40,400 nucleotides of DNA from a virus. The stretch is taken from the IMG/VR virus record IMGVR_UViG_3300035072_000126, positions 1-40,400 of that record, one strand, 5' to 3'. Numbering within the stretch: the first letter of the stretch is position 1; each line of letters starts with the position of its first letter. The notes under the pieces are model-generated. The model made no database searches and was not told the DNA's origin. It saw only the letters and a program-made list of their open reading frames with translations. This document shows, in pieces, positions 15,128 to 40,400 of this stretch. The translations under genes and the position numbers were made by a program.

Positions 15128-15180
15128 TGACGGCTCCGGGCGTGGCTAAATGTAGTTAAATAAAGAGATTTTAAGTTCAT
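15124..15180 (-). CDS. Putative 18-codon leaderless peptide coupled to gp37
   Basis: The ATG at 15180 lies 7 bases after the -10 hexamer TACACT, so the predicted transcript would begin at or next to this AUG. The frame (MNLKSLYLTTFSHARSRQ) ends in a TGA that overlaps the gp37 ATG (ATGA). No Shine-Dalgarno precedes it. It may be a translational coupling leader, or simply an accidental short frame. Confidence 0.35.
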   Translation of the reverse strand: MNLKSLYLTTFSHARSRQ

Positions 15181-15197
15181 GCCTACAGTGTAGGCAT
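15179..15197. promoter_or_regulatory. 19-bp palindrome overlapping the -10 box of the gp37 promoter
   Basis: ATGCCTACACTGTAGGCAT (minus strand) is a perfect 9+1+9 inverted repeat that contains the -10 hexamer TACACT and the likely start site. It could be an operator that blocks this promoter. The other two late promoters lack it. Confidence 0.5.
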
Positions 15198-15241
15198 ATG
15201 GAGGTAAGCGAAGAATCCGAAGCGCTTCGGAAGCCTCGCTT
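15187..15241 (-). promoter_or_regulatory. Late promoter before gp37 with activator dyad
   Basis: The perfect dyad TCCGAAGCGCTTCGGA (15216-15231) is followed on the minus strand, after exactly 23 bases, by TACACT (15187-15192) as the -10 box. There is no -35 match, as expected for a Mor/C-type activated promoter. An additional outer dyad (TAAGCGA and TCGCTTA, 15205-15211 and 15236-15242) flanks the core symmetrically with 4-base spacers. The same arrangement occurs at 19034-19078 and 31518-31562. Confidence 0.8.
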
Positions 15242-15252
15242 ATAGAGGGAGG

Positions 15253-15666
15253 TTAATAGCTGTCGCGAGAGAATGCAGAGGGGCCTGACGAAAAACTAAC
15301 CGTTGCGTCGGCAGGCTCGTCAACCGTACCGGAAGCGTCCGGAGCAATCGGTATTTTTCCGGATGCTACTTTTTCCAGATACTTGATAGCATCCTCATAA
15401 ACAGTCTGGATATGCTCAGGCACCAGGGGATGAAAGAGAAAATAGTGCGTAATATCGCAGGCTATTTGCTCGAAATCCTCGGGTACATTGGTCAGCGGCA
15501 GATATTGGGTTATATAGCGGTTAATCCGTGCGCCGGCTGCGGCAATTGCAGCATTGAGCACGGTGGCGTTAACGGTGGTTGCGGTCGGATCATCGCGGTT
15601 GGTCAGCTGGACCAGTTCCAGCTGACCAAATCGGTTGAGCAAACTCTGCAGAGTGCAGTACGACAT
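15253..15666 (-). CDS. Head-tail connector gp36-like (DUF1320)
   Basis: 137 residues. The N-terminus MSYCTLQSLLNRFGQLELVQLTNRDDP and the middle AAGARINRYITQYLPL...EQIACDITHYFLF match the DUF1320 (Mu gp36) family, a head-completion protein. The ATG overlaps the stop of the upstream gp35-like gene by one base. It is the last gene before the internal late promoter, so it ends the head transcription unit. Confidence 0.92.
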   Translation of the reverse strand: MSYCTLQSLLNRFGQLELVQLTNRDDPTATTVNATVLNAAIAAAGARINRYITQYLPLTNVPEDFEQIACDITHYFLFHPLVPEHIQTVYEDAIKYLEKVASGKIPIAPDASGTVDEPADATVSFSSGPSAFSRDSY

Positions 15667-15938
15667 TATTTAGCCGGTTTTTTGGCAGGCATGTCGGCAT
15701 CGTCAGATTTGCTTTCATCATCAGATTTTCCTGCGTCGTCAGATTTGTCGGCATCGTCGGATTTGCCAGTATCGCCACCGGCATCATTCGCCAGCACCTC
15801 GACAGCCAGCTTCGGTTCAAACAGCAGCTGCTCCAGCTCGGCCGCAGTAAAGCGGTCATCAGGATACTCGGTGGGCGCGGCTGAATGCGCCACGCCGGCG
15901 CGACGGAAACCCTCACTTAGTGATCTAATACGTATCAT
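15666..15938 (-). CDS. gp35-like protein (HI1506-related) with Ser-Asp-Asp repeats
   Basis: 90 residues. The N-terminal 55 residues (IRIRSLSEGFRRAGVAHSAAPTEY...RFTAAELEQLLFEPKLAVEVL) match the small FluMu HI1506 / Mu gp35 family, whose position between capsid and gp36 is conserved. Residues 57-83 form a degenerate repeat of KSDDA/G units, probably disordered and expandable. A Lys/Pro/Ala tail ends the protein. Likely a head accessory or decoration factor; function is not known. Confidence 0.8.
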   Translation of the reverse strand: MIRIRSLSEGFRRAGVAHSAAPTEYPDDRFTAAELEQLLFEPKLAVEVLANDAGGDTGKSDDADKSDDAGKSDDESKSDDADMPAKKPAK

Positions 15939-15954
15939 GTCAATCTCCCTTCAA

Positions 15955-17004
15955 TTAGCCAGCGCCAGTGCTGCCAACAGACAGCTGCCAAAATCCATAC
16001 ACACCCGTTGCCCTGGCCTCAGCGCCAAATTTGAATTCCTTTTTCATGAACACATCGTCATTTTCCGAGGAAGTTTGAGAAACAAAGGTCGGTCTCTTGC
16101 GCATTTGCACAATGAACGGCTTGATGGGTTTGGTCGTGACATGCAAAAACCAAGTAGTCCGGGAAGTCAGCGCCGGATTGACTAGCAGTTTAGCGGTGCC
16201 CTTATAAGGGTTCGGACTGTTATCATCGAGCTTATCGGAAGTCAGCAACTTGTTAGCGATCGCTTCCAGCGCGGGCGGTACCTCTAACGTATCAGGGATA
16301 AGCCTGAGCGGCATACCTTCATCATCGGTAAATTCCATAATTGCCGTTCTGGCAGCACCATAGCCCGCCGCTGCGGCCGCTGGTGTAGCCGAGCTCAACA
16401 CCGCCACTAACTTATTCGAGACCGATACCCCTTTAACCTCGTGATCAGTATCATAAAAATATTGACCATCGATACATGGACTTGCAAAAGCGCCATTTTT
16501 TAGGCTATCGACAATAATATCATTCAGCTCAGCCGCGCTGCCGCCCGCCATTTGTGCTTGCGTGTTGTAGATACCGAGACGATCGTCCTCAATATCATTG
16601 CGGTTAACCGAAATCGTCGTTTCCCAATCCTCATTGACCTTGGTATATTTTCCGGCCGCAAGCGATTTAACAAACTTTTCCCCCACCCATTTGCGCATCG
16701 CCGGAAATCGGCTCAACCAAGCGTAATCTTCGATGGCCCCAGTACTCGGCACCTCCATAGCTGTCGCCTGCCAATTGCCCGGCTGTGCCATCAGGGCATT
16801 ATTAAAGATCGTTTTTAGGCCGGTAAAAATCGTATTGATAGTTGATGCATTGACCAGTATGCCGCCGAATGCCAGCAGCAGCACCGCATCGGCATCCATC
16901 GACAGCGGCAGGGCCACAGCCGGACCGGAGAAGGCGAACGTCAGCGCCACGGCATAGGCTGCCACGGCCAGTACGCTAAAGAGGGTTCTTTTAATCGTTT
17001 TCAT
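15955..17004 (-). CDS. T: Major capsid protein gpT with hydrophobic N-terminal extension
   Basis: The start is ATG 17004, preceded by AGGAG seven bases upstream (an earlier ATG in the same frame would overlap the preceding gene). Residues from about 49 onward match Mu gpT: LVNASTINTIFTGLKTIFNN, WLSRFPAMRKWVGEKFVKSL, VNRNDIEDDRLGIY, CIDGQYFYDTDHEVKG and a C-terminal RPTFVSQTSSENDDVFMKKEFKFGAEAR. Residues 1-48 are unusual: KTIKR followed by an 18-residue hydrophobic stretch and SGPAVALP, resembling a signal peptide. Mu gpT as I know it begins directly at the conserved part. The extension could be a delta domain removed by gpI, or a small hydrophobic gene fused in. Confidence 0.93.
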   Translation of the reverse strand: MKTIKRTLFSVLAVAAYAVALTFAFSGPAVALPLSMDADAVLLLAFGGILVNASTINTIFTGLKTIFNNALMAQPGNWQATAMEVPSTGAIEDYAWLSRFPAMRKWVGEKFVKSLAAGKYTKVNEDWETTISVNRNDIEDDRLGIYNTQAQMAGGSAAELNDIIVDSLKNGAFASPCIDGQYFYDTDHEVKGVSVSNKLVAVLSSATPAAAAAGYGAARTAIMEFTDDEGMPLRLIPDTLEVPPALEAIANKLLTSDKLDDNSPNPYKGTAKLLVNPALTSRTTWFLHVTTKPIKPFIVQMRKRPTFVSQTSSENDDVFMKKEFKFGAEARATGVYGFWQLSVGSTGAG

Positions 17005-17017
17005 GTGTGCTCCTAAA

Positions 17018-17872
17018 TTAAGCGCTTGGGGTGATGACGAGAACAACGTGGCCGAGTTTTGCCGCGTCATTGGTGCCGCCGACCGTAATCGAAATCACGT
17101 TGCCGACCGCGACGGTTTTGGCGGCAGACGGCGTTACGCTATCCACGTCACCCGCCGCACTACCTGCCTGTGTCACGGTAACCACGCCATCAGTCACGGC
17201 TACCGCGCCGATTTTTGCGGTCAGCGTAGCGTCGCCGGTGGTCAAGGCGCCGTCGATAACGCTGTAAATCTTGTCAATGGTGCCTGCGACCGGCGAAACA
17301 GTACGCTTGACCTCGGCGGTCGCGCCGACCAGATTGATATCGCGGATCTCCAGGATGATTTTGTCAGCGCCGCCGCCCAGATTGGCACGGGCCGTGGATT
17401 TATTATCCAGGTCGGATAAGTTGCTGGCGGCCAATAACGCGCCTGCAGGAGCGACCAGGGCGTCCTGACCCATGCGTACCCAGACACCATCGGAATCGAC
17501 GTCTTCGATAATGCCCGCCGGTGATCGGGTGGCGCCGCCGCTGGTCTTGGCGACGGTTTCGTCATCCACGATGTAGCAGACACTGCCGACCTCGGCCAGG
17601 GTAATGGCATCGGCGGCGGCTGAATTTTTCCAGCGAAAAATGCCGTTTTCTACCGTGCCCCTAACATCGCCCGCATTACCGGCGCTATTGTCGACCTGCG
17701 CACTAATGCGGCCTACGCATTTCAGTCCGGTTGCCGTCGAGCCCTTGGTTAGATAACCGGTGGCATTGATAACACCGATGCTGCCGGCGTACACCTTCGC
17801 AGCTGCCAGCGGATAGCTGAACTGCTGCCCGGACCGTGAGGGGGTATTTCTGTCTTTCGTTAATACAGCCAT
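17018..17872 (-). CDS. Probable head decoration/structural protein
   Basis: 284 residues between the protease/scaffold and the capsid, where several Mu-like phages encode a head decoration protein. The N-terminal half (about 1-150) is beta-rich (RSGQQFSYPLAAAKVYAGSIGVIN, VGSVCYIVDDETVAKTSGG) like decoration proteins. A linker resembling fibre repeats (ASNLSDLDNKSTARANLG, about 150-168) joins it to a C-terminal beta sandwich (about 170-284) that may project from the capsid. It overlaps the I stop (TAATG). The assignment rests on position and composition. Confidence 0.72.
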   Translation of the reverse strand: MAVLTKDRNTPSRSGQQFSYPLAAAKVYAGSIGVINATGYLTKGSTATGLKCVGRISAQVDNSAGNAGDVRGTVENGIFRWKNSAAADAITLAEVGSVCYIVDDETVAKTSGGATRSPAGIIEDVDSDGVWVRMGQDALVAPAGALLAASNLSDLDNKSTARANLGGGADKIILEIRDINLVGATAEVKRTVSPVAGTIDKIYSVIDGALTTGDATLTAKIGAVAVTDGVVTVTQAGSAAGDVDSVTPSAAKTVAVGNVISITVGGTNDAAKLGHVVLVITPSA

Positions 17873-18453
17873 TATTTAGCCTCTTTGGTTTTTTTAAATT
17901 CGTCAGGATCGATGCCCATAGAGCTGCATACCGCCAGCTCATCCGCTGTCAATCCGCTATGCTCTTGGCTGTCGCCTACGGGTTTCTTGCCGCCGGTTTG
18001 CATGCTGGTTAAAGCGGCGATGGGCTGGACCGAATCCAGGTAAGACGACAAGGCCGCCAGGTCTTTTTTGCCCATGTTGGTTAACCAAGCCTTTGCGGGC
18101 TCACCGATGATGCGACCGTCGGCCACACCTTGCTCAATCAGCTTTTCCACACGGTCATCGATCGCGCCAATGGACAAGGCCGCCAATTGGCCGCGCAGTT
18201 CATTAACGACGGCGATCGGGGCGTATTGGGTGGGATCGACGGCGGCGGCAGTGCCGACTTGCGCAGACAATGCCGCTATCTCGGCATTTTTGGCGGACAG
18301 CACATCCAGCAAGCTGGTTGCAGCGGCGTCCGCCGTATTGCTATTGATTAACGCCTTGGCTTTATCCAGCTCGGCGGCTATTTGTTCGATGGTGGCAAGT
18401 GTCGGCAAATTGAACAGCCAACGTAATTGCTCCAACAGCTCATCTATTTCCAT
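17872..18453 (-). CDS. Z: Internal in-frame scaffold protein (Mu gpZ equivalent)
   Basis: An in-frame ATG at 18453 inside I is preceded by AGGA seven bases upstream and starts MEIDELLEQLRWLFNL. The resulting 193-residue protein contains the helical, Ala/Leu/Gln-rich scaffold region without the protease domain. Mu makes its scaffold Z from an internal start in I, so the placement agrees with the family. The internal start is inferred from the RBS and domain boundary. Confidence 0.7.
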   Translation of the reverse strand: MEIDELLEQLRWLFNLPTLATIEQIAAELDKAKALINSNTADAAATSLLDVLSAKNAEIAALSAQVGTAAAVDPTQYAPIAVVNELRGQLAALSIGAIDDRVEKLIEQGVADGRIIGEPAKAWLTNMGKKDLAALSSYLDSVQPIAALTSMQTGGKKPVGDSQEHSGLTADELAVCSSMGIDPDEFKKTKEAK

Positions 18454-19026
18454 AGAGGGTTCCTGTAAGTTAGTTGAGACGGATGCTAAAAGCGAAGTGG
18501 CCGCCACGGTTACAGCCTGCATGCCATCAATCGCGGGGTTATTGGTTAAAGCGACATTAAGAATATCCAGCACCTCGCCGGTTTTGGCGTCGTAGCTAAA
18601 TACTGGGGAGACATAGCGGATTTCATCAGCGGCAATATGCGCCGATGCGGCGGCGGTCCATTTTGGGCTGATCGCAAACAAGCCAGGATGCGCGGCCGGA
18701 GGCTCACGCCATTCCAGCGTCTGCGGCCCGATCCAACCGGCGGCTACAACGGGTTTGCCGTTCTGCGCTGACAATAAGGATTGGTGCTCATAATCAACGA
18801 CGATATCGCTCTTGCGTTGCGAGACGACGCCGATCAAGCGCAAGGCGGAATCGGCATCCAGCCGCCAAGGGCCTTTGCCGCGCAATGCGCCGCGCGGCGC
18901 ATCGAAAGTTCCAGCAGGAAATAATTGCATTGAGCCATCGCCGGAACCGCCCAGTTCAAACGTGCAGGCGGCGACCTCGACTTGAGCATATTGCTGATTA
19001 GATTTAAGAGGCTGTTTTTTGTTCAT
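17872..19026 (-). CDS. I: Prohead protease and scaffold precursor (Mu gpI)
   Basis: From ATG 19026 the protein has 384 residues. It shows the Mu protease pattern: MQLFPAGTFDAPRG near the N-terminus, IVDYEHQSLLSAQNGKPVVAAGWIGP with a conserved His, EIRYVSPVFSYDAKTGEVLDILNVALTNNPAIDGM, then a helical scaffold region and the C-terminal ELAVCSSMGIDPDEFKK. A TTG start at 19050 is open, but it lies upstream of the predicted start of the late transcript (-10 at 19034-19039). The ATG at 19026 sits 8 bases after the -10, so translation from this promoter would be leaderless. The protease cleaves scaffold and capsid during prohead maturation. Confidence 0.9.
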   Translation of the reverse strand: MNKKQPLKSNQQYAQVEVAACTFELGGSGDGSMQLFPAGTFDAPRGALRGKGPWRLDADSALRLIGVVSQRKSDIVVDYEHQSLLSAQNGKPVVAAGWIGPQTLEWREPPAAHPGLFAISPKWTAAASAHIAADEIRYVSPVFSYDAKTGEVLDILNVALTNNPAIDGMQAVTVAATSLLASVSTNLQEPSMEIDELLEQLRWLFNLPTLATIEQIAAELDKAKALINSNTADAAATSLLDVLSAKNAEIAALSAQVGTAAAVDPTQYAPIAVVNELRGQLAALSIGAIDDRVEKLIEQGVADGRIIGEPAKAWLTNMGKKDLAALSSYLDSVQPIAALTSMQTGGKKPVGDSQEHSGLTADELAVCSSMGIDPDEFKKTKEAK

Positions 19027-19033
19027 GGGCTGC

Positions 19034-19078
19034 ATGATAGACAGCCGCAAATGACGGGAGTATCCGAAGCGCTTCGGA
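19034..19078 (-). promoter_or_regulatory. Late promoter PI with activator dyad
   Basis: TCCGAAGCGCTTCGGA (19063-19078), 23 bases, then TATCAT (19034-19039) on the minus strand, with TAAAACC upstream of the dyad. There is no -35 element. The order dyad/-10/I gene equals the position of PI in Mu, which is activated by C. Confidence 0.82.
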
Positions 19079-19174
19079 AGAGGGTTTTACGAGGGAGTAT
19101 TTACACTATAGCAAAATGCAGTTGCCACAACCAATGCAAATGAGCGTTTCAACCGTTTATAAACGCGCTGATGG

Positions 19175-20121: not shown

Positions 20122-20763
20122 TTATCGGCAAATCGACTCACAAGGAACGCCGTCATGATCCCGATCCAGGCGACTTAAGCCACACTCATTCAGGTAGAAG
20201 TTGGCTTCAGCGCAATTGCTCATCTCTCCGCATTTCGATTTACCAGCGCATTCAAAGCTGCTGCTGGATGCGGTTTTCTTACTGGATGATTTTGTAGACG
20301 ATTTACCACCATGCCTAAATTCCCAGGGCGGCGTGGGGTTCTCATCAGCCCATAAGCCGGCACCGGCTAATTTGGCTTGCTCTTCCAGATCGGCAATAGA
20401 TTGATCGGTTAAATATTGTTTATACGCCCAGGCCATGCCTCGCTTGACCTGTTCGGCATTGGCGTCTATTCCGTCACAGGTTATACGGCCTAAGGTGCGC
20501 TTGTATTTGTCGGTACTGTGATCATCAACCACGACCGGCTTTTTAAAACACAGATCAGACAGTGACTTTTTAGATTGTGTGCCAAATGCCTGCTTGGATT
20601 CCGGGGCATCAATCTCGGCCAAACGGATTTTGACCTGGCGTTTTTCAGTGCTCAGCACTGTCAGCGTATCGCCGTCCGAGATGCCTACTACGGTCCCGGA
20701 CCATTGCGCAGCTGCAGCAGGTAATGGGGCCAATAAAATCAACAACCAAACAAATAAGTTCAT
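20122..20763 (-). CDS. Secreted thermonuclease (SNase) with C-terminal Excalibur domain
   Basis: 213 residues with a signal peptide (about 1-19, ending PAAAA). The SNase domain spans about residues 20-150: GISDGDTLTVL, KIRLAEIDAPE with Arg47 and Glu55 in the catalytic spacing, and DKYKRTLGRI with Arg89. A Ser/Lys linker follows, then a C-terminal Excalibur-type module with four-plus cysteines and RDHDGVPCE, a calcium-binding loop. A good AAAGGA RBS precedes the ATG. The protein should cut nucleic acid in the periplasm or outside the cell, plausibly degrading incoming DNA. It lies in the repressor operon direction and may be expressed in the lysogen. Confidence 0.85.
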   Translation of the reverse strand: MNLFVWLLILLAPLPAAAAQWSGTVVGISDGDTLTVLSTEKRQVKIRLAEIDAPESKQAFGTQSKKSLSDLCFKKPVVVDDHSTDKYKRTLGRITCDGIDANAEQVKRGMAWAYKQYLTDQSIADLEEQAKLAGAGLWADENPTPPWEFRHGGKSSTKSSSKKTASSSSFECAGKSKCGEMSNCAEANFYLNECGLSRLDRDHDGVPCESICR

Positions 20764-31506: not shown

Positions 31507-31562
31507 TAAACCCCTCTTCCGAACTGCTTCGGATACTCGCTAAATCCCTAAACTCATAAACT
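31507..31562 (+). promoter_or_regulatory. Late promoter Plys with activator dyad
   Basis: TAAACCC upstream, dyad TCCGAACTGCTTCGGA (31518-31533), 23 bases, then TAAACT (31557-31562). The inferred transcript would start near 31569, about 18 bases before the amidase ATG, with AAGGGGG as SD. The arrangement matches the other two late promoters and the position of Plys in Mu. Confidence 0.82.
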
Positions 31563-31586: not shown

Positions 31587-32120
31587 ATGAGCAATCGCCG
31601 CGCTACAGCGCAAATCAAATTTATTATCATTCATTGTTCAGCCACGCCGAACGGTAGAGTGACCACGGCGGCTGACATTGACAGCTGGCACAAACAGCGC
31701 GGTTTCACCCGCGACATGTCGCTATTCCCACACCATGCCCCGACGCTGAAATACATCGGCTATCACCTGGTCAACCGTATTGACGGGGTGGCTGAGTGCG
31801 GCCGCTATGAACTGGAAACCGGCGCGCATTGCATCGGCTATAACACCAACGGTATCGGCATCTGCATGGTCGGTACCGACGCCTTTAGCCTGGAACAATG
31901 GGCAACCCTCAAATCTCAAGTCGAGATTTTCAAAAAACGCTACCCCGGCATTACGGTAATGGGCCATCGCGATACCTCGCCGGACACTAATCACAATGGC
32001 CGCGTTGACCCGCAGGAATGGCTGAAAACCTGTCCTGGCTTTGATGTAAGCCAGTGGCTGGCTGGCGGCATGGCTCCGTTAGCGGGGCATATTTTTCCCG
32101 AGGTTCAAGACAATGCTTAA
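31587..32120 (+). CDS. N-acetylmuramoyl-L-alanine amidase (endolysin)
   Basis: 177 residues of the Amidase_2/PGRP type. Ligands visible: His16 in FIIIHCSAT, a later His in MGHRDTSPDTNHNGRVDP, and Cys in LKTCPGFDV (zinc site). WHKQRGFTRDM and GYHLVNRIDG are also typical. The protein cleaves the amide bond of peptidoglycan for lysis. It carries no signal peptide, so it depends on a holin-like channel. First gene of the late plus-strand operon. Confidence 0.94.
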   Translation: MSNRRATAQIKFIIIHCSATPNGRVTTAADIDSWHKQRGFTRDMSLFPHHAPTLKYIGYHLVNRIDGVAECGRYELETGAHCIGYNTNGIGICMVGTDAFSLEQWATLKSQVEIFKKRYPGITVMGHRDTSPDTNHNGRVDPQEWLKTCPGFDVSQWLAGGMAPLAGHIFPEVQDNA

Positions 32121-32385
32121 CAATTTTCTTTTACTCTGCCGCGCCCTTCGCGCCGGCGAATCTCTTGCTGATCCTGCGACTTGGAAGCAACGGCAACTGC
32201 GGTTGAATGCGCTACTGGCTATTTTGTGGTTGCTGGCTAAGTTGTTGCCTGTCGAGTTAGCGCCTGATGATATCGATGCTCTAGCAAACGGCATCGGCAT
32301 GATTGGCGGAACATTGGTTAATGGTTATTTGACAGTGGCCACCACCGTTAAGATTGGTTTCGGACGCTTGCGAGGTGAGTCATGA
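32113..32385 (+). CDS. Holin-like small membrane protein
   Basis: 90 residues. RALRAGESLADPATWKQRQLRLNALLAILWLLAKLLPVEL and VNGYLTVATTVKIGF match small proteins directly downstream of the Mu-like amidase, with two hydrophobic segments (about 31-46 and 61-82). Position and hydrophobicity suggest a holin or holin partner. It overlaps the amidase stop by 8 bp and the Rz gene by 4 bp. Confidence 0.7.
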   Translation: MLNNFLLLCRALRAGESLADPATWKQRQLRLNALLAILWLLAKLLPVELAPDDIDALANGIGMIGGTLVNGYLTVATTVKIGFGRLRGES

Positions 32386-32762
32386 GTTATTTAATTGTAG
32401 CTGGACTGCTAGGTCTGCTTGGCTCAGTGTTACTCGCCATGTTGTATCGGCATAACGCCAACATTAACAAGATCGATGCCGACTATGAGCGAAACCGCGC
32501 CGCCCTGGCCGAACAAGCCAACACTAGCCGGCAGCAGTTGGATAAAGCGCTGCAAACTCTCCATGAAACCCACCGCGAGGAAACTATCGATGCTACAAAC
32601 CCGACACATTTGGCTGCTCGTGACGATTTTGCTAATGCTTGGTCTGGTGATGACGGGCTGCACAGATCAGAAACCGATTCAGGTGATGCAACAGGCGCTA
32701 CCGCTGCCGACTCGACCGGCGCTGCCGCCCATCATGTCAGCCGAACTGACTTGTCTAAGTGA
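32382..32762 (+). CDS. Rz: i-spanin Rz-like protein
   Basis: 126 residues with an N-terminal transmembrane helix (about 3-21, YLIVAGLLGLLGSVLLAML) followed by a charged coiled-coil (ADYERNRAALAEQANTSRQQLDKALQTL). The C-terminal half is Asp/Ala/Gly/Thr-rich low complexity, read in the frame overlapping Rz1. This is the inner-membrane subunit of the spanin pair. The start overlaps the holin-like stop (ATGA). Confidence 0.82.
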   Translation: MSYLIVAGLLGLLGSVLLAMLYRHNANINKIDADYERNRAALAEQANTSRQQLDKALQTLHETHREETIDATNPTHLAARDDFANAWSGDDGLHRSETDSGDATGATAADSTGAAAHHVSRTDLSK

Positions 32763-32874
32763 TGAAGCTTATGAACGCCTAGCCACGCGTAATCGGCTAC
32801 TACGGCAATATTCTGAAGAACTGGAAGTCATTATTAAATCAACTGCCCGGATAAGGGATTCTCCAAATGACTGA
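32590..32874 (+). CDS. Rz1: o-spanin Rz1-like lipoprotein nested in Rz
   Basis: 94 residues in the +1 frame relative to Rz. The start (MLQTRHIWLLVTILLMLGLV) behind GAGG leads to a lipobox (MTGC) and a Pro-rich segment (ALPLPTRPALPPI) typical of Rz1, then a helical charged tail. The lipoprotein spans to the outer membrane and pairs with Rz. About 173 bases of the gene lie inside the Rz coding region, a standard overlap in spanin loci. Confidence 0.85.
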   Translation: MLQTRHIWLLVTILLMLGLVMTGCTDQKPIQVMQQALPLPTRPALPPIMSAELTCLSDEAYERLATRNRLLRQYSEELEVIIKSTARIRDSPND

Positions 32875-33094
32875 TCCTATAGACCGCGCTAATGATACGG
32901 CGCAATTCAATAATGACTTGGCTATTCAACAGCACCGGATCGATCACGCGCTACCTGCGCAGTTGGTGGTCGACGGTGTTGTTGAATGCATTGATTGCGG
33001 GATTGATATACCGGCCGATAGGCTAGCGGCATTGCCGAACTGCGTGCGCTGTATTGATTGCCAGACAATACATGAGATAAGGGAAAAGCAATGA
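32867..33094 (+). CDS. TraR/DksA-type zinc-finger protein
   Basis: 75 residues with a C4 zinc finger CIDCGIDIPADRLAALPNCVRCIDC and a preceding helix rich in charged residues. DksA/TraR-type proteins alter RNA polymerase response at certain promoters. It overlaps the Rz1 stop (ATGACTGA). Occurrence in the late operon of Mu-like phages is usual; its target here is unknown. Confidence 0.9.
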   Translation: MTDPIDRANDTAQFNNDLAIQQHRIDHALPAQLVVDGVVECIDCGIDIPADRLAALPNCVRCIDCQTIHEIREKQ

Positions 33095-33480
33095 CGATTA
33101 GCGTGGATGTATGGGAATTGCTGGGGTTACTGGGTTCTTTACTAGCTGCGTTTTCGGTGGTGATGTTTACAGCCGGAAAGCTGTTAATCGGTCAATTTGA
33201 TCGCCGTCTAACTGAGCGCTTTGCGGCTCAGGATAAAGCGCGCGAAGTGTCGCAAAAGCATTGGGATACTAAATTCACCGCGCTGGAAAATGCTGCCGCC
33301 ACAGAGGCTAAGGAGTGGCAGCGCATTGAAAAAGATATTTTGCTGATGAAGGCTGAACTGCCTAATCAGTATGTACGCCGAGATGATTACATTCGCAATC
33401 AGTCGGTGATTGAATCAAAAATTGACGGGCTGGCCGTCCGCATTGAAAACGCTATTCTAAAAGGGGAACGCCATGGCTGA
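33091..33480 (+). CDS. Membrane-anchored coiled-coil late protein
   Basis: 129 residues with one N-terminal transmembrane helix (about 9-30, LLGLLGSLLAAFSVVMFTAGKLL) and a long charged helix (about 35-125). The pattern matches a hypothetical protein preceding the VpaChn25_0724-type gene in many Mu-like phages. Function unknown. It overlaps both neighbours by a few bases. Confidence 0.78.
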   Translation: MTISVDVWELLGLLGSLLAAFSVVMFTAGKLLIGQFDRRLTERFAAQDKAREVSQKHWDTKFTALENAAATEAKEWQRIEKDILLMKAELPNQYVRRDDYIRNQSVIESKIDGLAVRIENAILKGERHG

Positions 33481-33784
33481 TTTAGCCAAAGTACGCCGTG
33501 AAAACATCAGATGGATGATTTTGTTAACGCTGAACAATGCCGCACCGCACGGTGCATTTGAGAGCATTGTACTGTCGGTCATTAGGGCCGAATACCCGGA
33601 TGCTACGCAGGAAGAGCTACGCAAAAATCTGGACTATCTGGACATGCGTGATCTGATCAGTATCGATCATCAGCCGGATGGCCGCTGGTTCTGCAAGCTG
33701 GAGCGCTACGGTGTGGATGTGGTTGAGTACACAGTGGATGTGGAACCAGGGATTGCTCGGCCGGGGAAGTATTTCAATGCCTAA
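33473..33784 (+). CDS. VpaChn25_0724-family phage protein
   Basis: 103 residues. RENIRWMILLTLNNAAPHGAFESIVLSVIRAEYPDATQEELRKNLDYLDMRDLI is a winged-helix-like segment typical of this Mu-like family (Mu gp26 position), placed just before the terminase small subunit region. A DNA-binding or packaging-related role is possible. Coupled to both neighbours by overlaps. Confidence 0.82.
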   Translation: MADLAKVRRENIRWMILLTLNNAAPHGAFESIVLSVIRAEYPDATQEELRKNLDYLDMRDLISIDHQPDGRWFCKLERYGVDVVEYTVDVEPGIARPGKYFNA

Positions 33785-34016
33785 GTTGAAGTTATCCGGG
33801 CCTCAGAAAGAGATTGTCGACGTTCTTGCTCATATTATGGCTGCAAGTCATATTGCCTCTAATATCGATGGCATGTCGAACTTTCTTAATTATTACATTG
33901 AAAACGGTCTGTCAGACAGACAGCGCGCTATTTATAGCGAATCGAACGATCGTTCTATCCGCGTTAGGCAGGATATAGCCGATATGCTGGAGAAAGAGGA
34001 TAAGGCTAATGCCTAG
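33777..34016 (+). CDS. Small late protein before terminase
   Basis: 79 residues (MPKLKLSGPQKEIVDVLAHI start), helical with a charged C-terminus. The ATG at 33777 overlaps the previous gene by 8 bp. A longer upstream start in the same frame would overlap that gene fully and lacks an RBS. Function unknown. Confidence 0.7.
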   Translation: MPKLKLSGPQKEIVDVLAHIMAASHIASNIDGMSNFLNYYIENGLSDRQRAIYSESNDRSIRVRQDIADMLEKEDKANA

Positions 34017-34557
34017 GCCATCTCCTATCGATGATCTATCTGCCGAACAGCGCACAAAATTTGAAGCTGAGCTGATCCGGCGCAATTTTAAAGATTACGA
34101 TGGCTTAGCGGAATGGCTGCGCGCAAATGGGCTGGAGATTTCGCGCAGTTCCGCCTATCGGCACGGCTCAAAGTTGCAGCGCCGGTTGCAGAATGTCCGC
34201 AACTCCACTGAAGCGGCCCGGCTGATTGCCGAGGCAGCGCCTGATGATGCGGATTTGCGATCGGCGGCGGTGATATCGCTGGTGCAGTCTGAATTATTCG
34301 ATGTAATGGTGACGTTGCAGGATCTAGATGAAGCTAAACCCGAAGAACGAGTAGTTCTGCTGAAAGAATGCGCGCGGTCGGTGCTGGATATGACTAAGGC
34401 CAGTGTGCTACAAAAACAATGGGCAGAGAAAGCTAAGGCCAAGCTGCAAGCGGCAGCGGCAGAAGCTGAGCCTATCGCTAAAAAGGCTGGATTATCAGAT
34501 TCGGATTGGGCGGCGATTCGGGCTAAGTTCCTGGGCGTTGAGGTTGAATCAGCGTGA
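34009..34557 (+). CDS. Terminase small subunit (DUF3486, Mu gp27-like)
   Basis: 182 residues. PRPSPIDDLSAEQRTKFEAELIRRNFKDYDGLAEWLRANGLEISRSSAYRHGSKLQ is the DUF3486 HTH-type N-terminus, followed by a helical dimerisation part. It recognises phage DNA ends for headful packaging. In Mu the large subunit gene follows at once. Here an Acb2-like gene (34585-34911) is inserted between them. Confidence 0.92.
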   Translation: MPRPSPIDDLSAEQRTKFEAELIRRNFKDYDGLAEWLRANGLEISRSSAYRHGSKLQRRLQNVRNSTEAARLIAEAAPDDADLRSAAVISLVQSELFDVMVTLQDLDEAKPEERVVLLKECARSVLDMTKASVLQKQWAEKAKAKLQAAAAEAEPIAKKAGLSDSDWAAIRAKFLGVEVESA

Positions 34558-34568
34558 TTTTTTAAACT
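34557..34568 (+). repeat. ATTTTTTAAACT junction motif, copy 3
   Basis: Lies at the stop of the terminase small subunit and precedes the Acb2-like gene with its GAGAG leader. 12-bp identical to 30897-30908. Confidence 0.5.
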
Positions 34569-34584
34569 AAAAAAGAGAGAAATA

Positions 34585-34911
34585 ATGAAAAACCAACATC
34601 AAAAAATTAAGGGCTACCGCGAGCTAAATCAGGAAGAAATTGATTTGATGAATCGCATCAAGACCAAGGGCGAAGAACTTATGCAACTTCAACATGAGTT
34701 GCAATGTCGTCTGAATACAGACCTTGAGGTAAAAACATCGGCTGCTGATAAATCTAAGTTAGCGCCAAATGATGAGGCTAGCGATGAATGCATCGAACTT
34801 CGTCGTTTTAAGGCAGCCGAACCGCACCGCTGGGCAGCTATCGGAAAAACTGATATTCAGACTGGAATTATGGCGCTAGTACGTGCCGTAGCCCAGCCTA
34901 CAACTGCGTAG
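34585..34911 (+). CDS. acb2: Acb2-like cyclic-nucleotide sponge (anti-CBASS/Thoeris type)
   Basis: 108 residues. The N-terminus KIKGYRELNQEEIDLMNRIKTKGEEL places Tyr at residue 11 and Lys at residue 26, the positions reported as ligand-binding in Pseudomonas phage Acb2. The C-terminus RWAAIGKTDIQTGIMALVRAVAQPT matches the second helix of the Acb2/Tad1 hairpin domain. An acidic spacer (about 55-75) joins the two. Acb2 proteins bind cyclic oligonucleotides and blunt CBASS, and some relatives blunt Thoeris signalling. The gene has its own GAGAG-type RBS and stands between the two terminase genes as an insert. Assignment is by recognition, not by a search. Confidence 0.85.
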   Translation: MKNQHQKIKGYRELNQEEIDLMNRIKTKGEELMQLQHELQCRLNTDLEVKTSAADKSKLAPNDEASDECIELRRFKAAEPHRWAAIGKTDIQTGIMALVRAVAQPTTA

Positions 34912-34924
34912 AGGTTGAAACGGC

Positions 34925-36538
34925 GTGAGCGAATCCGTCAGCGTAGAACCGATCGAGGTTTCAGCCGGGGAAAAAAAAGACCTGCTCGATCTGGTTGATG
35001 AGCAGCAAGCGTTACGCGCCACCCGCAAGTTGCCGCCCGATCAAGTCCCTAAAATTTTACTGCCTTATCAAATCCGCTGGCATTTGGATCAATCTAATGT
35101 CCGCATTGCGGAAAAATCACGCCGGATTGGCTGGTCGTGGGGCTGCATAGCGGCTGAAGGGGCTTTGGAAGCCGCCGCCGAGCACGGCATGAACCAGTAT
35201 TACATGGGCTACAACATGGGCATGGCGGCCGAAAATATCGGCGACGCGCTGACCTTTGCCCGCGCCTATGGCATGGCGTGCTCAGCTATCGATATTAGCC
35301 GTGAGCGCGAGGTGATCGGCGAAAAGCGGCAGGATATTACCCGGTTCCGGTTGACCTTCGCCAGCGGCCATATTTACGAGGCGCTATCGTCTTCGCCCTG
35401 GAACTGGCGGGGCCGCCAAGGTCATGCGTTGATCGATGAGGCGGCGTTTCATCGTAATTTGCGCGAGGTGATCAAAGGGGCGCTGGCGTTTTTAATGTGG
35501 GGCGGCCGTGTCGATATCATTTCTACGCACAACTCTGAAGAAAATGATTTTTTCGATCTGATCCGCGATGTGAAGACCGGCAAGTTGCCGACCTGGAGTC
35601 TGCATCATATCGATTTTGATCAGGCGATACGTGAGGGTTTTTATCAGCGGATCTGTTTGGTTACCGGCCGTGAATGGAGCAAGGAAAGTGAGCAGGCATG
35701 GCGGGATGAGCAGTATGCCAGTTATCCCAGTCAGGAAGATGCTAATGAGGAGTTGGGATGCATCGCTAAGCGCGGTTCGGGCGCTTATTTTACGCGGATG
35801 CTGCTTGAGCAATGCATGATTGATGGTGTGCCGGTGATTACCTGGTCTAAGCCTGCCGATTGGGTTACCGATCCTAACCGGCTGGCGGAAACCGATATCT
35901 GGATTAAGGATAATCTAAAGCCCGTTATCGACAATATGACTCAGCATAAATCGGTATATGGCCAGGATTTCGGGCGGTCTGGCGATTTATCAGTTACGGA
36001 TGTTCTGCAACAGCGCGACCCCAGCCGCTGGACGATGGCGTTCAGACTGGAACTGCGCAATATCCCGTTTGATGTGCAGGCCAAAATCCGCGATTACATT
36101 TTAAAGGCTATGCCGATGCTGCATCATGCGGCGTTTGATGCGAGGGGCAATGGTCAATCGCATGCTGAAGGTGCGTTACAGCTGTTCGGCCAGGCGCGTG
36201 TGTCATGCATGATGGCGACTGCGCAGATGTATATGGATTTTTTCCCTAAATATAAACAATGCCTGGAAGAGCGGTCGTTTTTGATTGCGCGGCATGAAGA
36301 TACAGTTTCGGATCATCGCCGGGTGGTGCTGCGTAAGGGCAATCCTACGATGGATGATGGTCATGATAAAGGCGCGGACGGCCAGCTTCGGCATGGGGAT
36401 AGCGCCATTGCCGGGTTGATGTCGTTTATTGCGACCTTGGCTGCTGGCGGCATGATCGAATATATCCCCATCCCCAGCAAAGAAGACCGCTACTGGGAAA
36501 AAGATGATTTAGATATTGGACGAAAAGGGGCGTATTAA
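34925..36538 (+). CDS. Terminase large subunit (Mu gp28-like)
   Basis: 537 residues from a GTG start (GAGG upstream). The ATPase part shows RIAEKSRRIGWSWG (P-loop-like), HALIDEAAF (Walker B) and a later IISTHNSEEN. The RNase H-like nuclease shows YGQDFGRSGDLS, AFDARGNGQ and RHGDSAIAG acidic residues. This is the packaging motor and DNA cutter. The stop overlaps the portal start (TAATG). Confidence 0.94.
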   Translation: MSESVSVEPIEVSAGEKKDLLDLVDEQQALRATRKLPPDQVPKILLPYQIRWHLDQSNVRIAEKSRRIGWSWGCIAAEGALEAAAEHGMNQYYMGYNMGMAAENIGDALTFARAYGMACSAIDISREREVIGEKRQDITRFRLTFASGHIYEALSSSPWNWRGRQGHALIDEAAFHRNLREVIKGALAFLMWGGRVDIISTHNSEENDFFDLIRDVKTGKLPTWSLHHIDFDQAIREGFYQRICLVTGREWSKESEQAWRDEQYASYPSQEDANEELGCIAKRGSGAYFTRMLLEQCMIDGVPVITWSKPADWVTDPNRLAETDIWIKDNLKPVIDNMTQHKSVYGQDFGRSGDLSVTDVLQQRDPSRWTMAFRLELRNIPFDVQAKIRDYILKAMPMLHHAAFDARGNGQSHAEGALQLFGQARVSCMMATAQMYMDFFPKYKQCLEERSFLIARHEDTVSDHRRVVLRKGNPTMDDGHDKGADGQLRHGDSAIAGLMSFIATLAAGGMIEYIPIPSKEDRYWEKDDLDIGRKGAY

Positions 36539-38211
36539 TGAATTTAATCATGGATTGGCTGGCATTGCTTGGCTCAAAACTGACATCTTCGGCTGTTAAA
36601 GAGAAGCAAACCGATTCGCCAACATCGGCCACATTGCACCGCGAATTTGCAACGCATCCATCTTCCGGCCTAACGCCGGCCCGTTTGGCGGCTATTTTTA
36701 TCGAGGCTGAGCAAGGCAATCTGATTGCGCAGGCCGAGCTGTTCCAGGACATGCAAGAAAAAGATACGCATATTGCTGCAGAGATGAGTAAGCGGATGAT
36801 GGCGGTCAAGAAATTGGATTGGGAGTTACGGCCGCCGCGCGACGCCACGGCAACTGAAAAAAAGAACACTAAATATTTGCAGGACCTGATTACCGATGAG
36901 ATCGATGTCGGCAATTTGAGGATGGATGCGTTGGATGCGATCGGGCACGGTTATTCCTGTATAGAACTGGGTTGGGGGCGAAATTTACAGGACAAATGGT
37001 TTCCGAATCAGCTGGAGCATCGCCCGCCGACGTGGTTTACCACGCCGCCTGACCAGCGTAATACCTTGCATTTACGCGACAGCGGCACTGCGTATGGGGT
37101 GCCGCTGCAGCCGTTTGGCTGGATTCCGCATTTTCATAAGTCGCGGGCCGGGTATATTGCCAGAACCGGGCTGTTTCGTGCGCTGGCTTGGCCGTATTTG
37201 TACAAGAATTACTCGGTGCGTGATATGGCTGAGTTCCTGGAGATTTATGGGCTGCCGATTCGGATAGGTAAATATCCATCGACAGCCAGCGAAAAAGAAA
37301 AGCGGGATCTGCTACGTGCCGTACTCAGTATCGGCCATAACGCAGCCGGTATTATCCCGGATACGATGCAGTTCGATCTGGCGAAGGTGGTAGGTTCAGG
37401 AAATGCCGATTCGTTTATGGCGATGATTAATTGGTGCGAAGCCAGTCAATCTAAAGCGATTTTAGGCGGCACGCTGACCAGTTCGACCGGCGCGAACGGC
37501 AATCGCTCGTTGGGTGATGTGCATAATGAGGTACGGCTGGATATCCGGGATGATGATGCGACGCAATTGGATCAAACGCTGAGTAGTTATCTGGTTTATC
37601 CGATAGCGATGCTGAACGGGTTATTTGCGGATAATCGTTGTCCTAGTTGGGTGAGTGATACGCAGGAGCCGGATGATCTGGCACTGTATGCCGACGCGCT
37701 GCCTAAGCTGGCTGCAGCCGGGGTTCGGATTGGTGTGGACTATCCAAATTTAAAGCTTAAGATTCCGATTCCAGATGAGGGTAAGCCAATATTAGGTGCT
37801 GGGTTAGAGTCGAGTTCCCCGCCTGGAACCCGTGCCGCAGCACAGCCGGCTGCTAATCAGGCCGGGGCCGCAGCTATGGCGGGTCTAATTACGAATACCT
37901 CCTTGACCACGGACGGGAAGACTAGCATGGCTGCTACCAGTCAGCCTGGGCAGGGGGATAATCCTGTTCAGTTGGGTGATTCTATCGATTCACATACCGA
38001 TTTGCTGACGGCAGCGGCCGGGGTATCGATCAAATCGATGGTGAGTGCGATACAGACGAAGGTTGAGCAAGCCGAAAGCCTGGAAGCACTACGCGACGAC
38101 CTGATTAACAGTTACGGCGATCTGGATAGCGACAGCTTGTCCCGTGTCATGGCGCTGGCGTTTGCGACGGCGGATTTGTCAGGACGGTTTGATGTGAGCG
38201 AGGGGAATTAA
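36538..38211 (+). CDS. Portal protein (DUF935, Mu gp29-like)
   Basis: 557 residues. LHREFATHPSSGLTPARLAAIFIEAEQGNLIAQAELFQDMQEKDTHIAAEMSKR and the middle LFRALAWPYLYKNYSVRDMAEFLEIYGLPIRIGKYP are hallmark DUF935. The portal ring is the site of packaging and tail attachment. A Gly/Ala/Gln-rich segment (about 420-460) is a disordered insertion before the helical C-terminus. Coupled to terminase by TAATG. Confidence 0.94.
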   Translation: MNLIMDWLALLGSKLTSSAVKEKQTDSPTSATLHREFATHPSSGLTPARLAAIFIEAEQGNLIAQAELFQDMQEKDTHIAAEMSKRMMAVKKLDWELRPPRDATATEKKNTKYLQDLITDEIDVGNLRMDALDAIGHGYSCIELGWGRNLQDKWFPNQLEHRPPTWFTTPPDQRNTLHLRDSGTAYGVPLQPFGWIPHFHKSRAGYIARTGLFRALAWPYLYKNYSVRDMAEFLEIYGLPIRIGKYPSTASEKEKRDLLRAVLSIGHNAAGIIPDTMQFDLAKVVGSGNADSFMAMINWCEASQSKAILGGTLTSSTGANGNRSLGDVHNEVRLDIRDDDATQLDQTLSSYLVYPIAMLNGLFADNRCPSWVSDTQEPDDLALYADALPKLAAAGVRIGVDYPNLKLKIPIPDEGKPILGAGLESSSPPGTRAAAQPAANQAGAAAMAGLITNTSLTTDGKTSMAATSQPGQGDNPVQLGDSIDSHTDLLTAAAGVSIKSMVSAIQTKVEQAESLEALRDDLINSYGDLDSDSLSRVMALAFATADLSGRFDVSEGN

Positions 38212-38212
38212 G

Positions 38213-38362
38213 GTGGTAGTCGGCGTTTTATTTAACCCCTGTGCGTTTTGGATAGGTGCGCATTACTCTATATATAATAGGTGTCTCTGCATCAATGTGC
38301 TGCCTCTGCTGACTATTTGGATTGTGTTTAAAGGCGGGGTTGTGCCTAAATCATGCCGTTAA
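38213..38362 (+). CDS. Conserved small phage protein (FNPCAFWIGAHYS type)
   Basis: 49 residues from a GTG at 38213 with GAGGGG about 8 bases upstream. The sequence (VGVLFNPCAFWIGAHYSIYN, then CLCINVLPLLTIWIVFKGG) matches a short protein family that I recognise from many phage genomes, with conserved Cys, Trp, His and Tyr. It overlaps the MuF-type gene start by 10 bp. The function is not known to me. Confidence 0.75.
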   Translation: MVVGVLFNPCAFWIGAHYSIYNRCLCINVLPLLTIWIVFKGGVVPKSCR

Positions 38363-39789
38363 AGCTATCTCCCACCCAGCTGGCTTTCAATGCCCGAGGC
38401 GATGGCAAGTTCGGCTTGCCATTCCAGGAGCAGATCGATTTTTTCCGGCAAAAACTCAATCTTCCTACCGAGTATTACGATGATATTTTGGCCGAGGCCC
38501 ACAATCGCGCTTTTGTGGTGGCTGGGGCGGCCAAGGCCGACCTGCTGGCCGATCTACGCGGCGCTGTCGATAAAGCGATCGCCGACGGCAAAACCATTCA
38601 GTGGTTCAGGAAGGAGTTTACCGGGATTGTGCGAGCACATGGTTGGGAAGGCTGGGCGGGGTCTGATACTCAGGCGGGCCGTGACTGGCGGACGCGGGTG
38701 ATCTACAGCACCAACATCCAGGCCAGCTACAACGCGGGCCGCTATGCCCAGCTGACCCACCCCGATTTGCTTAAGTATTATCCAAACTGGAAATATGTCC
38801 ATAACGATACGGTAGCGCATCCACGGCCACTGCATCAAAGCTGGTCGGGTACGGTTTTGCCGCATGACGATCCTTGGTGGGACACGCACTTTACGCCTAA
38901 CGGCTATGGCTGCCGATGCCGTATTACCTCGGCCAATCCCGGCGAATATAAAGGCCATCCAGCCCCGAATGACGGAACCTATGAAAAAATAGACCGCAAC
39001 GGCGTGGTGCATACCCTGCCCAAAGGCGTTGATTATGGGTTTGACTATAAGCCGGGAGCGCCGGTTTCAGGCCAGATGAAGGGTTTTATCGATAATAAGG
39101 CTGCAAGTCTGCCGAAGGAGCTGGGCAAGGCGTTTCAGAAAGATATGGAAGCCCGTAAAAGCTCAGCGCCTCTCATCAGCAGTGCGTTTGAATTGCCTAA
39201 AAGCGGCCTGGCTAAAACTGCCGTCAATACGGTGTTAATGGAAATAGACGGACTGCATAGTGCGGTTGAATTACCTAAGATTCCGGTAAAAAACAGCACC
39301 AGTTATAAGTTTCAGGGGCGGTATGTCTATCAAGAGTTAAGCAAAAAGCCTGTCGAGATTGCTATATCTAAAGCGTCGGTAAATCCAGAACTGACCGCCG
39401 CACATGAGATCGGGCATTTTATCGATCATCAGGCATTGTGGGATATTGGGGTGTATGCTTCGGTTAAAGCCCCGATTCTGGAAAATTGGCGTGCTGCTAT
39501 CGAGGCGAGTGCTGCTACGGATAATTTAAAAACGGTTCTGAAGACGCACAGCGATTTTAGGACTCGGAGCAAGGCGTCATATTATCTAGCCGCCTGGGAG
39601 CAATGGGCACGGTCCTATGCTCAGTGGGTAGCGACGCGCAGCAATAATACTGCTATGATTGAACAAGTACAGAAAATCACGCAAGCCAGCAATCCGGCAT
39701 ATAGCGCGTCCCAGTGGGATGCCTCGGATTTTGAGCCGATAGCAGCGGCTATAGATGAAATTTTCATAAAATTGGGGTGGTTAAGATGA
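38353..39789 (+). CDS. MuF/SPP1 gp7-type head protein with C-terminal zincin (HEIGH) domain
   Basis: 478 residues. The N-terminal half (about 1-215) is the head morphogenesis domain: IYSTNIQASYNAGRYAQL, HPRPLHQSWSGTVLPHDDPWW and NGYGCRCRI. The C-terminal part (about 255-478) is different. It contains AAHEIGHFIDH (His351, Glu352, His355) and, 61 residues after His355, WEQWARSY with Glu416 as a likely third zinc ligand, the layout of zincin metallopeptidases. MuF proteins with toxin-like C-terminal domains are known as polymorphic phage-borne toxins; this one looks like a metalloprotease member. The stop overlaps the next ATG (ATGA). Confidence 0.88.
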   Translation: MPLKLSPTQLAFNARGDGKFGLPFQEQIDFFRQKLNLPTEYYDDILAEAHNRAFVVAGAAKADLLADLRGAVDKAIADGKTIQWFRKEFTGIVRAHGWEGWAGSDTQAGRDWRTRVIYSTNIQASYNAGRYAQLTHPDLLKYYPNWKYVHNDTVAHPRPLHQSWSGTVLPHDDPWWDTHFTPNGYGCRCRITSANPGEYKGHPAPNDGTYEKIDRNGVVHTLPKGVDYGFDYKPGAPVSGQMKGFIDNKAASLPKELGKAFQKDMEARKSSAPLISSAFELPKSGLAKTAVNTVLMEIDGLHSAVELPKIPVKNSTSYKFQGRYVYQELSKKPVEIAISKASVNPELTAAHEIGHFIDHQALWDIGVYASVKAPILENWRAAIEASAATDNLKTVLKTHSDFRTRSKASYYLAAWEQWARSYAQWVATRSNNTAMIEQVQKITQASNPAYSASQWDASDFEPIAAAIDEIFIKLGWLR

Positions 39790-39944
39790 TTGAGAATATG
39801 GATAGCATCATTTACGACATCATGCAGCAATATCCTGAAAATGAATGGCTGGAACGTTCCCGTGAGGCGCTGCCTGGTATCGATGACGGTGAAATCCTGA
39901 GCGCCATAGAGATATTCAGCGGCGGCGATGTTGAAGCGGTATAA
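39786..39944 (+). CDS. Small acidic protein coupled to the MuF-zincin gene
   Basis: 52 residues (MIENMDSIIYDIMQQYPENE start; GIDDGEILSAIEIFSGGDVE near the end), strongly acidic and helical. The ATG overlaps the upstream stop (ATGA), so the two are co-translated. Placement immediately after a candidate toxin domain fits an immunity or antitoxin protein. No family is recognised, so this role is inferred only from position and charge. Confidence 0.6.
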   Translation: MIENMDSIIYDIMQQYPENEWLERSREALPGIDDGEILSAIEIFSGGDVEAV

Positions 39945-39959
39945 GCACGGATAATACCT

Positions 39960-40400
39960 GTGATCAAAGGAGCCATAGTAACTGGCCCGGTCTTGGCTGA
40001 ATTAAATAGGCTACACCAGAATACCGCTAATCTATCGCCAGCCGCGCGGAAGATTGGCGAAACGCTAAAAGAATCCACTCAGAAGCGGTTTGAATCTGCC
40101 ACTGCTCCAGACGGCACAGCATGGGCTCTTAATAAGCCATCAACGCTTGAACACAAAAAAGGCAGCCGCCCGCTAACCGATGGCGGTACTCTTGGCGATA
40201 CCATTGATTATCAACTCCGTGGCGAATATTCTTTATTAATAGGCAGCCCCGCAGAGCAAGCTGCTATGATGCAATTTGGTGGAACTAAATCAGAGTTTCC
40301 CAATCTTTGGGGTGATATTGAAGGCAGGGCTTTTTTGGGGATTTCCGATGAAGATGAAACCGACATCCTCAACATTCTTGAGCGCCATTTAAACTTGTAA
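39960..40400 (+). CDS. G: Virion morphogenesis protein (Mu gpG-like, tail completion)
   Basis: 146 residues from a GTG at 39960 with no clear SD. The protein shows LAELNRLHQNTANLSPAARKIGETLKESTQKRFESATAPDGTAWALNKPSTLEHKKG and the terminal YSLLIGSPAEQAAMMQFGGTKSEFP...GRAFLGISDEDE, both standard for the phage virion morphogenesis family (Mu gpG). Its stop is the last base of the window. In Mu the protease gene I follows directly, but here I lies about 21 kb away on the other strand. Confidence 0.92.
   Translation: MIKGAIVTGPVLAELNRLHQNTANLSPAARKIGETLKESTQKRFESATAPDGTAWALNKPSTLEHKKGSRPLTDGGTLGDTIDYQLRGEYSLLIGSPAEQAAMMQFGGTKSEFPNLWGDIEGRAFLGISDEDETDILNILERHLNL

What the first reader, a model, noticed from the sequence alone, without database searches (positions are those of the whole stretch)
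34585..34911. Acb2-like anti-defence sponge between the terminase genes
A 108-residue protein has the Acb2/Tad1 hairpin signature (KGYRELNQEEIDLMNRIK and GIMALVRAVAQPT), with Tyr11 and Lys26 at the positions known to bind ligand in Pseudomonas Acb2. It separates the two terminase genes, which are normally adjacent, and has its own GAGAG leader behind a repeated AT-rich junction motif. This suggests an inserted anti-CBASS or anti-Thoeris gene in a Mu-like prophage.
Basis: partly seen in the sequence, partly recalled or inferred. Interest (0 to 1): 0.72.

Follow-up and report, generated by a model that had tools for sequence, protein, structure and literature searches.

The report
Acb2 sponge gene inserted between terminases
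A Mu-like phage of methane-eating bacteria carries, between its two DNA-packaging genes, a small extra gene for a known kind of protein (Acb2) that soaks up the bacterium's alarm molecules; the protein family is known, and what is new is the host group and a clear footprint of how the gene was inserted.

Summary
Window 34585-34911 (+) encodes a 108-residue Acb2 protein: it scores above the Pfam Acb2/Tad1-hairpin cut-off, belongs to PHROG 717, matches solved Pseudomonas-phage Acb2, and its AlphaFold monomer has Acb2 structures as its eight best PDB matches. Tyr11, Lys26 and Arg100 fall on residues that contact cGAMP in T4 Acb2 (Vs.4). It is not Tad1: the N-terminal beta-sheet domain is missing. 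The gene is an insertion. In relatives with 71-96% identical large terminases (including a Methylobacter MAG, which points to a methanotroph host) the two terminase genes overlap or nearly touch, without acb2. In the window a 23-bp copy of that junction flanks the gene on each side (20/23 identical; chance expectation 0.00), so the small-terminase stop and the large-terminase start are both intact. A very distant acb2 occupies the same junction in another Mu-like phage. Others sit at portal, capsid and tail junctions. CD-NTases occur in 18 of 151 genomes sampled from the host family; three of the four loci fetched lie beside a 2TM effector gene. Most likely it is a late-expressed sponge for CBASS cyclic nucleotides. 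Ligand range and hexamer are untested. New member of a known kind.

The parts
34009..34557 (+). terS, small terminase subunit (Mu gp27 family), left neighbour, intact
   Evidence: Pfam Phage_Mu_Gp27 2.2e-38, PHROG 426 1.1e-38
34535..34557 (+). left copy of 23-bp direct repeat = 3' end of terS (GCGTTGAGGTTGAATCAGCGTGA)
   Evidence: the repeat finder and pattern search, 20/23 identical to the right copy, 0.00 expected in shuffles; single copy in empty-site relatives
34558..34584 (+). AT-rich leader of the inserted cassette, TTTTTTAAACTAAAAAAGAGAGAAATA, with weak Shine-Dalgarno-like GAGAG at 34575-34579
   Evidence: direct reading; occurs once in the window; its 3' part with the first codons has no exact match in viral contigs
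34585..34911 (+). acb2: 108-aa cyclic-nucleotide sponge; Tyr11 codon 34615-34617, Lys26 34660-34662, Arg100 34882-34884
   Evidence: PF24729 6.4e-17; PHROG 717 6.7e-28; PDB 8h2j 1.6e-22; AF2 pLDDT 89.7; Foldseek 8h2j E 9.8e-6, TM 0.66/0.75
34906..34928 (+). right copy of the 23-bp repeat (GCGTAGAGGTTGAAACGGCGTGA); holds the acb2 stop codon, the region just upstream of terL and the terL GTG start
   Evidence: its last 17 bases (AGGTTGAAACGGCGTGA) are identical to the single junction of L091
34925..36538 (+). terL, large terminase subunit, right neighbour, intact
   Evidence: Terminase_6N 5.5e-8, PHROG 2 1.9e-28; 96% identical to a Methylobacter MAG copy

Best explanation
The gene is a bona fide acb2, gained by a Mu-like phage of methanotrophs (Methylobacter or a close relative) as a single-gene cassette of about 350-370 bp at the overlapping terS/terL junction. 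Gain duplicated about 17-23 bp of that junction, so terS keeps its stop and terL keeps its upstream region and GTG start. Transcribed with the late packaging genes, it makes a helical-hairpin protein that by family precedent assembles as a hexamer. Three pockets between protomers (Tyr11, Lys26, Arg100) trap cyclic dinucleotides, and two sites on the trimer axis trap cyclic trinucleotides. This keeps the CBASS effector of the cell from being activated while heads are built and filled. Shown here: family membership, fold, pocket residues, insertion and junction duplication, CD-NTases with adjacent 2TM effector genes in some genomes of the host family. Inferred: hexamer, ligands, late expression, protection from CBASS, recombination as the route of gain.
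For: PF24729 6.4e-17, over cut-off. PHROG 717, the family used to define Vs.4 homologues (PMC10097602), 6.7e-28. PDB p26/Acb2 8h2j 1.6e-22 and 8ixz 3.9e-22. AF2 model pLDDT 89.7, all-helical; its eight best PDB matches are all Acb2/Vs.4. K26 and R100 invariant and Y11 at least 90% in 41 relatives; they align with Vs.4 Y8, K23, R79 (PMC10097602). 213 phage records and 89 viral-contig stretches hold relatives. Empty sites in relatives 71-96% identical in TerL. 23-bp junction duplication; the single junction of L159 and of L097 aligns to both flanks with about 21 bp of overlap. terL relatives in two Methylobacter genomes. SMODS CD-NTase in 18/151 genomes of that host family; three of the four loci fetched (L160-L162) have a 2TM effector beside it.
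Against: No binding or protection data for this protein. T4 contacts H11 and F82 are not kept (L14, A103), although PaP2-type Acb2 also lacks them, so ligand preference may differ. Neither Methylobacter genome that carries a relative of the terminase has a SMODS CD-NTase, so CBASS in the actual host is unproven. No promoter-like site was found by the scan at the gene, and late expression rests on position alone. The left repeat copy differs from the right by a whole codon (TCA/ACG), so a simple transposition-type target duplication is not shown.
Confidence: 0.88

Rival explanations
1. It is a Tad1-type anti-Thoeris sponge that traps gcADPR rather than CBASS nucleotides.
For: The Pfam family joins the hairpin domains of Acb2 and Tad1.
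Against: Tad1 has an N-terminal antiparallel beta-sheet before the two helices (PMC12043709); this protein has about 15 residues before the first helix and no strand of 3 or more residues in the model. The best structural and PDB sequence matches are all Acb2/Vs.4, none Tad1.
Confidence: 0.03
2. Acb2 fold kept, but the main ligand is another cyclic nucleotide (cUA, c-di-AMP, cA3 or a methanotroph-specific product); it blocks CBASS of a specificity other than 3',3'-cGAMP.
For: Pocket differs from T4 at two contacts (L14, A103). Acb2 homologues differ in ligand spectrum (PMC12043709). CBASS seen in the host family uses SMODS cyclases with 2TM (SLATT_4) effectors, not a CapV-type phospholipase in the loci examined.
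Against: PaP2-type Acb2, which binds 3',3'-cGAMP (8h2j), has the same L and A at these two places.
Confidence: 0.3
3. A terminase accessory or regulator acquired with the packaging genes, with a packaging role.
For: Lies between terS and terL; another acb2 is at the same junction in L138/L144.
Against: Close relatives with terminases up to 96% identical lack it. Related genes sit at tail, capsid, portal and lysis junctions as well. The cyclic-nucleotide pocket is conserved.
Confidence: 0.02
4. The terS/terL pair with acb2 is ancestral and acb2 was lost in the relatives; the repeat is coincidence.
For: A distant acb2 also sits between terS and terL in L138/L144.
Against: That protein is only 38% identical and far away in the tree. 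The junction repeat is not expected by chance (0.00 in shuffles). Relatives 71-96% identical, including deeper ones (L097-L099, L101), are all empty.
Confidence: 0.06

Closest known systems
Acb2 of Pseudomonas phage PaP2 and its near-identical PaMx33-group homologues (p26; PDB 8h2j, 8h2x, 8ixz)
   Same: Hairpin fold, NQH..KIKGYR N-terminus, Y11, K26, RAxAQP C-terminus; 8h2j is the best PDB match by sequence and by fold
   Different: 45% identical; helix 1-helix 2 linker about 15 residues longer here; located next to a capsid gene in PaP2
Acb2 homologue of Beetrevirus JBD67 / PM105 (transposable Pseudomonas phages)
   Same: 70.5% identical, same length (108 aa), same clade in the tree with 99/90 support
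   Different: Lies downstream of the major capsid gene, before the head-tail adaptor, not between terminases
Vs.4 / Acb2 of phage T4 (PDB 7uq2)
   Same: Same fold; Y8, K23 and R79 correspond to Y11, K26 and R100 (PMC10097602)
   Different: Distant sequence; H11 and F82 are L14 and A103 here
p26 of Vibrio phage VP882
   Same: 67.8% identical
   Different: Next to a DNA adenine methylase gene downstream of tail genes; linker longer
Tad1 (anti-Thoeris)
   Same: Shares the C-terminal hairpin Pfam domain
   Different: Tad1 has an N-terminal beta-sheet domain and binds gcADPR; this protein lacks the domain

Membership tests
Acb2 (Vs.4, PHROG 717) | Sequence similarity to the family above curated cut-off | tested here: met
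   PF24729 61.9 bits against a cut-off of 27; PHROG 717 6.7e-28; PDB Acb2 1.6e-22
Acb2 (Vs.4, PHROG 717) | Fold: two long antiparallel helices with C-terminal kink, no beta domain | tested here: met
   AF2 pLDDT 89.7, helices 16-57, 67-78, 80-103; eight best PDB matches are Acb2/Vs.4
Acb2 (Vs.4, PHROG 717) | Cyclic-dinucleotide pocket residues (T4 Y8, K23, R79; also H11, F82) | tested here: inconclusive
   Y11, K26, R100 present; H11 and F82 positions are L14 and A103, as in PaP2 Acb2
Acb2 (Vs.4, PHROG 717) | Homohexamer | not testable with these tools
   Only monomer prediction was offered
Acb2 (Vs.4, PHROG 717) | Binds and sequesters cyclic di- and trinucleotides without cleaving them | not testable with these tools
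   Needs ITC or native gel
Acb2 (Vs.4, PHROG 717) | Protects phage from CBASS | not testable with these tools
   Needs plating assay
Acb2 (Vs.4, PHROG 717) | Phage-encoded | tested here: met
   Flanked by terS, terL, portal of a Mu-like phage
Tad1 | N-terminal antiparallel beta-sheet ahead of the hairpin | tested here: not met
   No strand of 3 or more residues; first helix starts at residue 16
Tad1 | gcADPR binding | not testable with these tools
   Needs a binding assay

The most novel reading that the evidence does not exclude
acb2 behaves as a roaming one-gene cassette that enters translation-coupled junctions of late operons by a recombination event that duplicates the junction, so it adds a counter-defence gene without breaking either neighbour; the duplication in this window is a footprint of that process, and similar leader repeats in some other acb2 loci (L080, L082, weaker L007) reflect the same route.
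Probability: 0.3. Interest if true: 0.5.

Novelty: new member of a known kind. Interest (0 to 1): 0.3.

Why it matters
It extends Acb2, studied in Pseudomonas, Vibrio and T4-like phages, to a phage group tied to methane-oxidising bacteria, and pairs it with CD-NTase genes in that host family. The before-and-after comparison (empty junction in a 96% terminase relative, filled junction with duplicated ends here) gives a readable record of how a small anti-defence gene enters an essential operon without harming it.

Tried and rejected
PADLOC and NCBIfam gave no match for the protein, which reflects what the libraries hold. Low GC of the insert as proof of foreign origin was rejected: 12% of windows of that size are as low, and acb2 GC follows its phage's GC across loci (r = 0.93, z of this window -1.8). 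A terminator-like hairpin at the terS end was seen but folding is no better than shuffles (z 0.04), so it is not claimed. A general flanking-repeat rule for acb2 was tested on 57 loci: three besides the window reach p about 0.0006 (L033, L080, L082), one of them (L033) being a terminator-like T-rich stretch rather than a leader repeat, so it is not general. Exact searches for the cassette leader and the left junction in viral contigs gave no informative relative. The original Acb2 papers in Cell and Mol Cell are not in the library.

Full report
Observation. The ORF at 34585-34911 (+) is real, starts with ATG, is 108 residues long and holds the quoted motifs. It lies between a Mu gp27-type small terminase (34009-34557) and the large terminase (34925-36538), followed by a Mu portal, a gpF-like gene and a gpG-like gene. 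The window is the whole of a 40.4-kb virus record.

What the protein is. Pfam Acb2_Tad1_hairpin matches at 6.4e-17, 61.9 bits against a cut-off of 27. PHROG 717, the family from which Jenson et al. drew Vs.4 homologues (PMC10097602), matches at 6.7e-28. By sequence alone it matches solved Acb2 (p26; 8h2j 1.6e-22, 8ixz 3.9e-22). With a profile of 41 relatives, T4 Vs.4 (7uq2) also appears, weakly. AlphaFold2 on an alignment of 35 own and locus sequences gives pLDDT 89.7, pTM 0.73, helices 16-57, 67-78 and 80-103 and no strand of 3 or more residues. Foldseek against the PDB puts five Acb2 chains first (E 9.8e-6 to 3.8e-5, probability 1.00), then three Vs.4 chains.

Pocket. In T4 Vs.4, Y8 and F82 stack on the bases of cGAMP, and Y8, H11, K23 and R79 make hydrogen bonds or salt bridges (PMC10097602). 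In the profile alignment Y8, K23 and R79 fall on Y11, K26 and R100 of the window protein (allowing one extra residue at the start of the PDB chain). K26 and R100 are invariant and Y11 is at least 90% conserved in 41 sequences.

It is an insertion. Large-terminase relatives that are 71-96% identical have no acb2: terS and terL overlap by 4 bp (GTGA in L091 and L159, ATGA in L097-L099) or lie 2 bp apart as aligned (L089, L101, L104). Some relatives with 87% terL have a 97-bp spacer with no homologue of acb2 (L092 and copies). The closest, L159, is in a Methylobacter MAG with terL 95.9%, terS 82% and portal 70% identical. Aligned to it, window 34206-34557 matches L159 7653-8004 and window 34908-37712 matches L159 7984-10779, so 21 bp of the empty site occur on both sides of acb2. 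L097 behaves the same. In the window this is a 23-bp direct repeat, 34535-34557 and 34906-34928, 20 of 23 identical, the only repeat in the region, with no match in 100 shuffles. The last 17 bases of the right copy, from just after the acb2 stop through the terL start (AGGTTGAAACGGCGTGA), are identical to the single junction of L091; the left copy differs in one codon (TCA for ACG). The right copy contains the acb2 stop, the stretch just upstream of terL and the terL GTG. The net effect is that both neighbours stay whole. That this arose by recombination at or near the junction is inference; the one-codon difference argues against a fresh transposition-type duplication.

How widely acb2 roams. 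213 phage records and at least 89 viral-contig stretches carry relatives. They sit downstream of the major capsid gene in JBD67/PM105, after the tail tube in R20L, beside a methylase in VP882, between portal and protease in L063 and in L164, which is in a genome of the Methylobacter family, between large terminase and portal in L044, between portal and gpF in L020 and L029, upstream of tail genes in L010 and after the endolysin gene in L009. L138 and L144 (two contigs with the same junction sequence) hold a 73-residue acb2, 38% identical, between terS and terL: a very distant protein at the same junction (tree), although long branches make its place uncertain. The window protein groups with JBD67-type and other Mu-like phage copies (support 99/90).

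A control on 57 representative acb2 loci: 14 have a terminator-like hairpin within 70 bp upstream against 13 of 341 other ORF starts (odds ratio 8.2, p = 1.6e-6). acb2 is thus often an add-on unit behind a terminator. The loci are related to each other, so the p value is too small. Flanking repeats stand out from the cross-locus null in the window, L080 and L082 (p about 0.0006), in L033 at the same level but there as a terminator-like T-rich stretch, and weakly in L007, so repeats are seen in a minority only.

Is there a target in the hosts? terL relatives in genomes were found only in two Methylobacter records. Neither has a SMODS CD-NTase. In 151 genomes sampled from that family, 18 do. Four of these loci were fetched. 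Three (L160, L161, L162) have a 2TM (SLATT_4) effector gene beside the cyclase, as expected of CBASS; L163 holds only a shortened cyclase frame and was not scanned. Acb2 itself is rare there: 1 of 201 genomes over the cut-off. CBASS is therefore present in the wider host group; for the actual host it is unknown.

How it works. By precedent, Acb2 is a hexamer that binds three cyclic dinucleotides in pockets between protomers and cyclic trinucleotides at the ends of the central channel, without cleaving them (PMC10097602, PMC12043709). The best explanation is that this phage makes the sponge with its late packaging proteins and keeps CBASS effectors off until heads are filled. The cost, by precedent, is that Acb2 triggers Panoptes, which guards the nucleotide pool (PMC12657218). 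Which ligands this protein prefers is open.

Novelty and verdict. The protein is a new member of a known kind. New here are the methanotroph-associated phage group and the legible insertion scar between terminase genes.

Noticed in passing
window 31517-31533 (+), 19062-19079 (-), 15215-15232 (-): A palindrome TTCCGAA-NN-GCTTCGGA occurs three times: just before the lysis/packaging operon, just before the head-protease gene, and upstream of the minus-strand gene ending the tail operon start near 15.1 kb (0.01 expected in shuffles); also in relative L092. It looks like an operator or late-promoter element.
   Followed up: partly
window 3205-19050 (-) against 31587-40400 (+): The late genes are split: protease, capsid and tail on the minus strand, lysis to gpG on the plus strand. 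In L159 protease and capsid follow gpG on the same strand. Either an inversion or a chimeric or permuted contig.
   Followed up: partly
57 representative acb2 loci (L002-L088, L138 and window): acb2 is preceded by a terminator-like hairpin much more often than other ORFs (14/57 against 13/341).
   Followed up: partly
L138 6541-6759, L144 6541-6759: A 73-residue minimal acb2 with His instead of Tyr11 between terS and terL of another Mu-like phage.
   Followed up: partly
L033 5001-5324, L088 5001-5321: Two relatives have Cys in place of Tyr11 (GCREL), a change that may disable dinucleotide binding.
   Followed up: no
window 20122-20763 (-): A staphylococcal-nuclease-like protein with an Excalibur domain lies beside the repressor-like region.
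   Followed up: no
L092 5904-6000 and copies: A 97-bp spacer with a short frame sits between terS and terL in 87% relatives, so this junction varies in other ways too.
   Followed up: no
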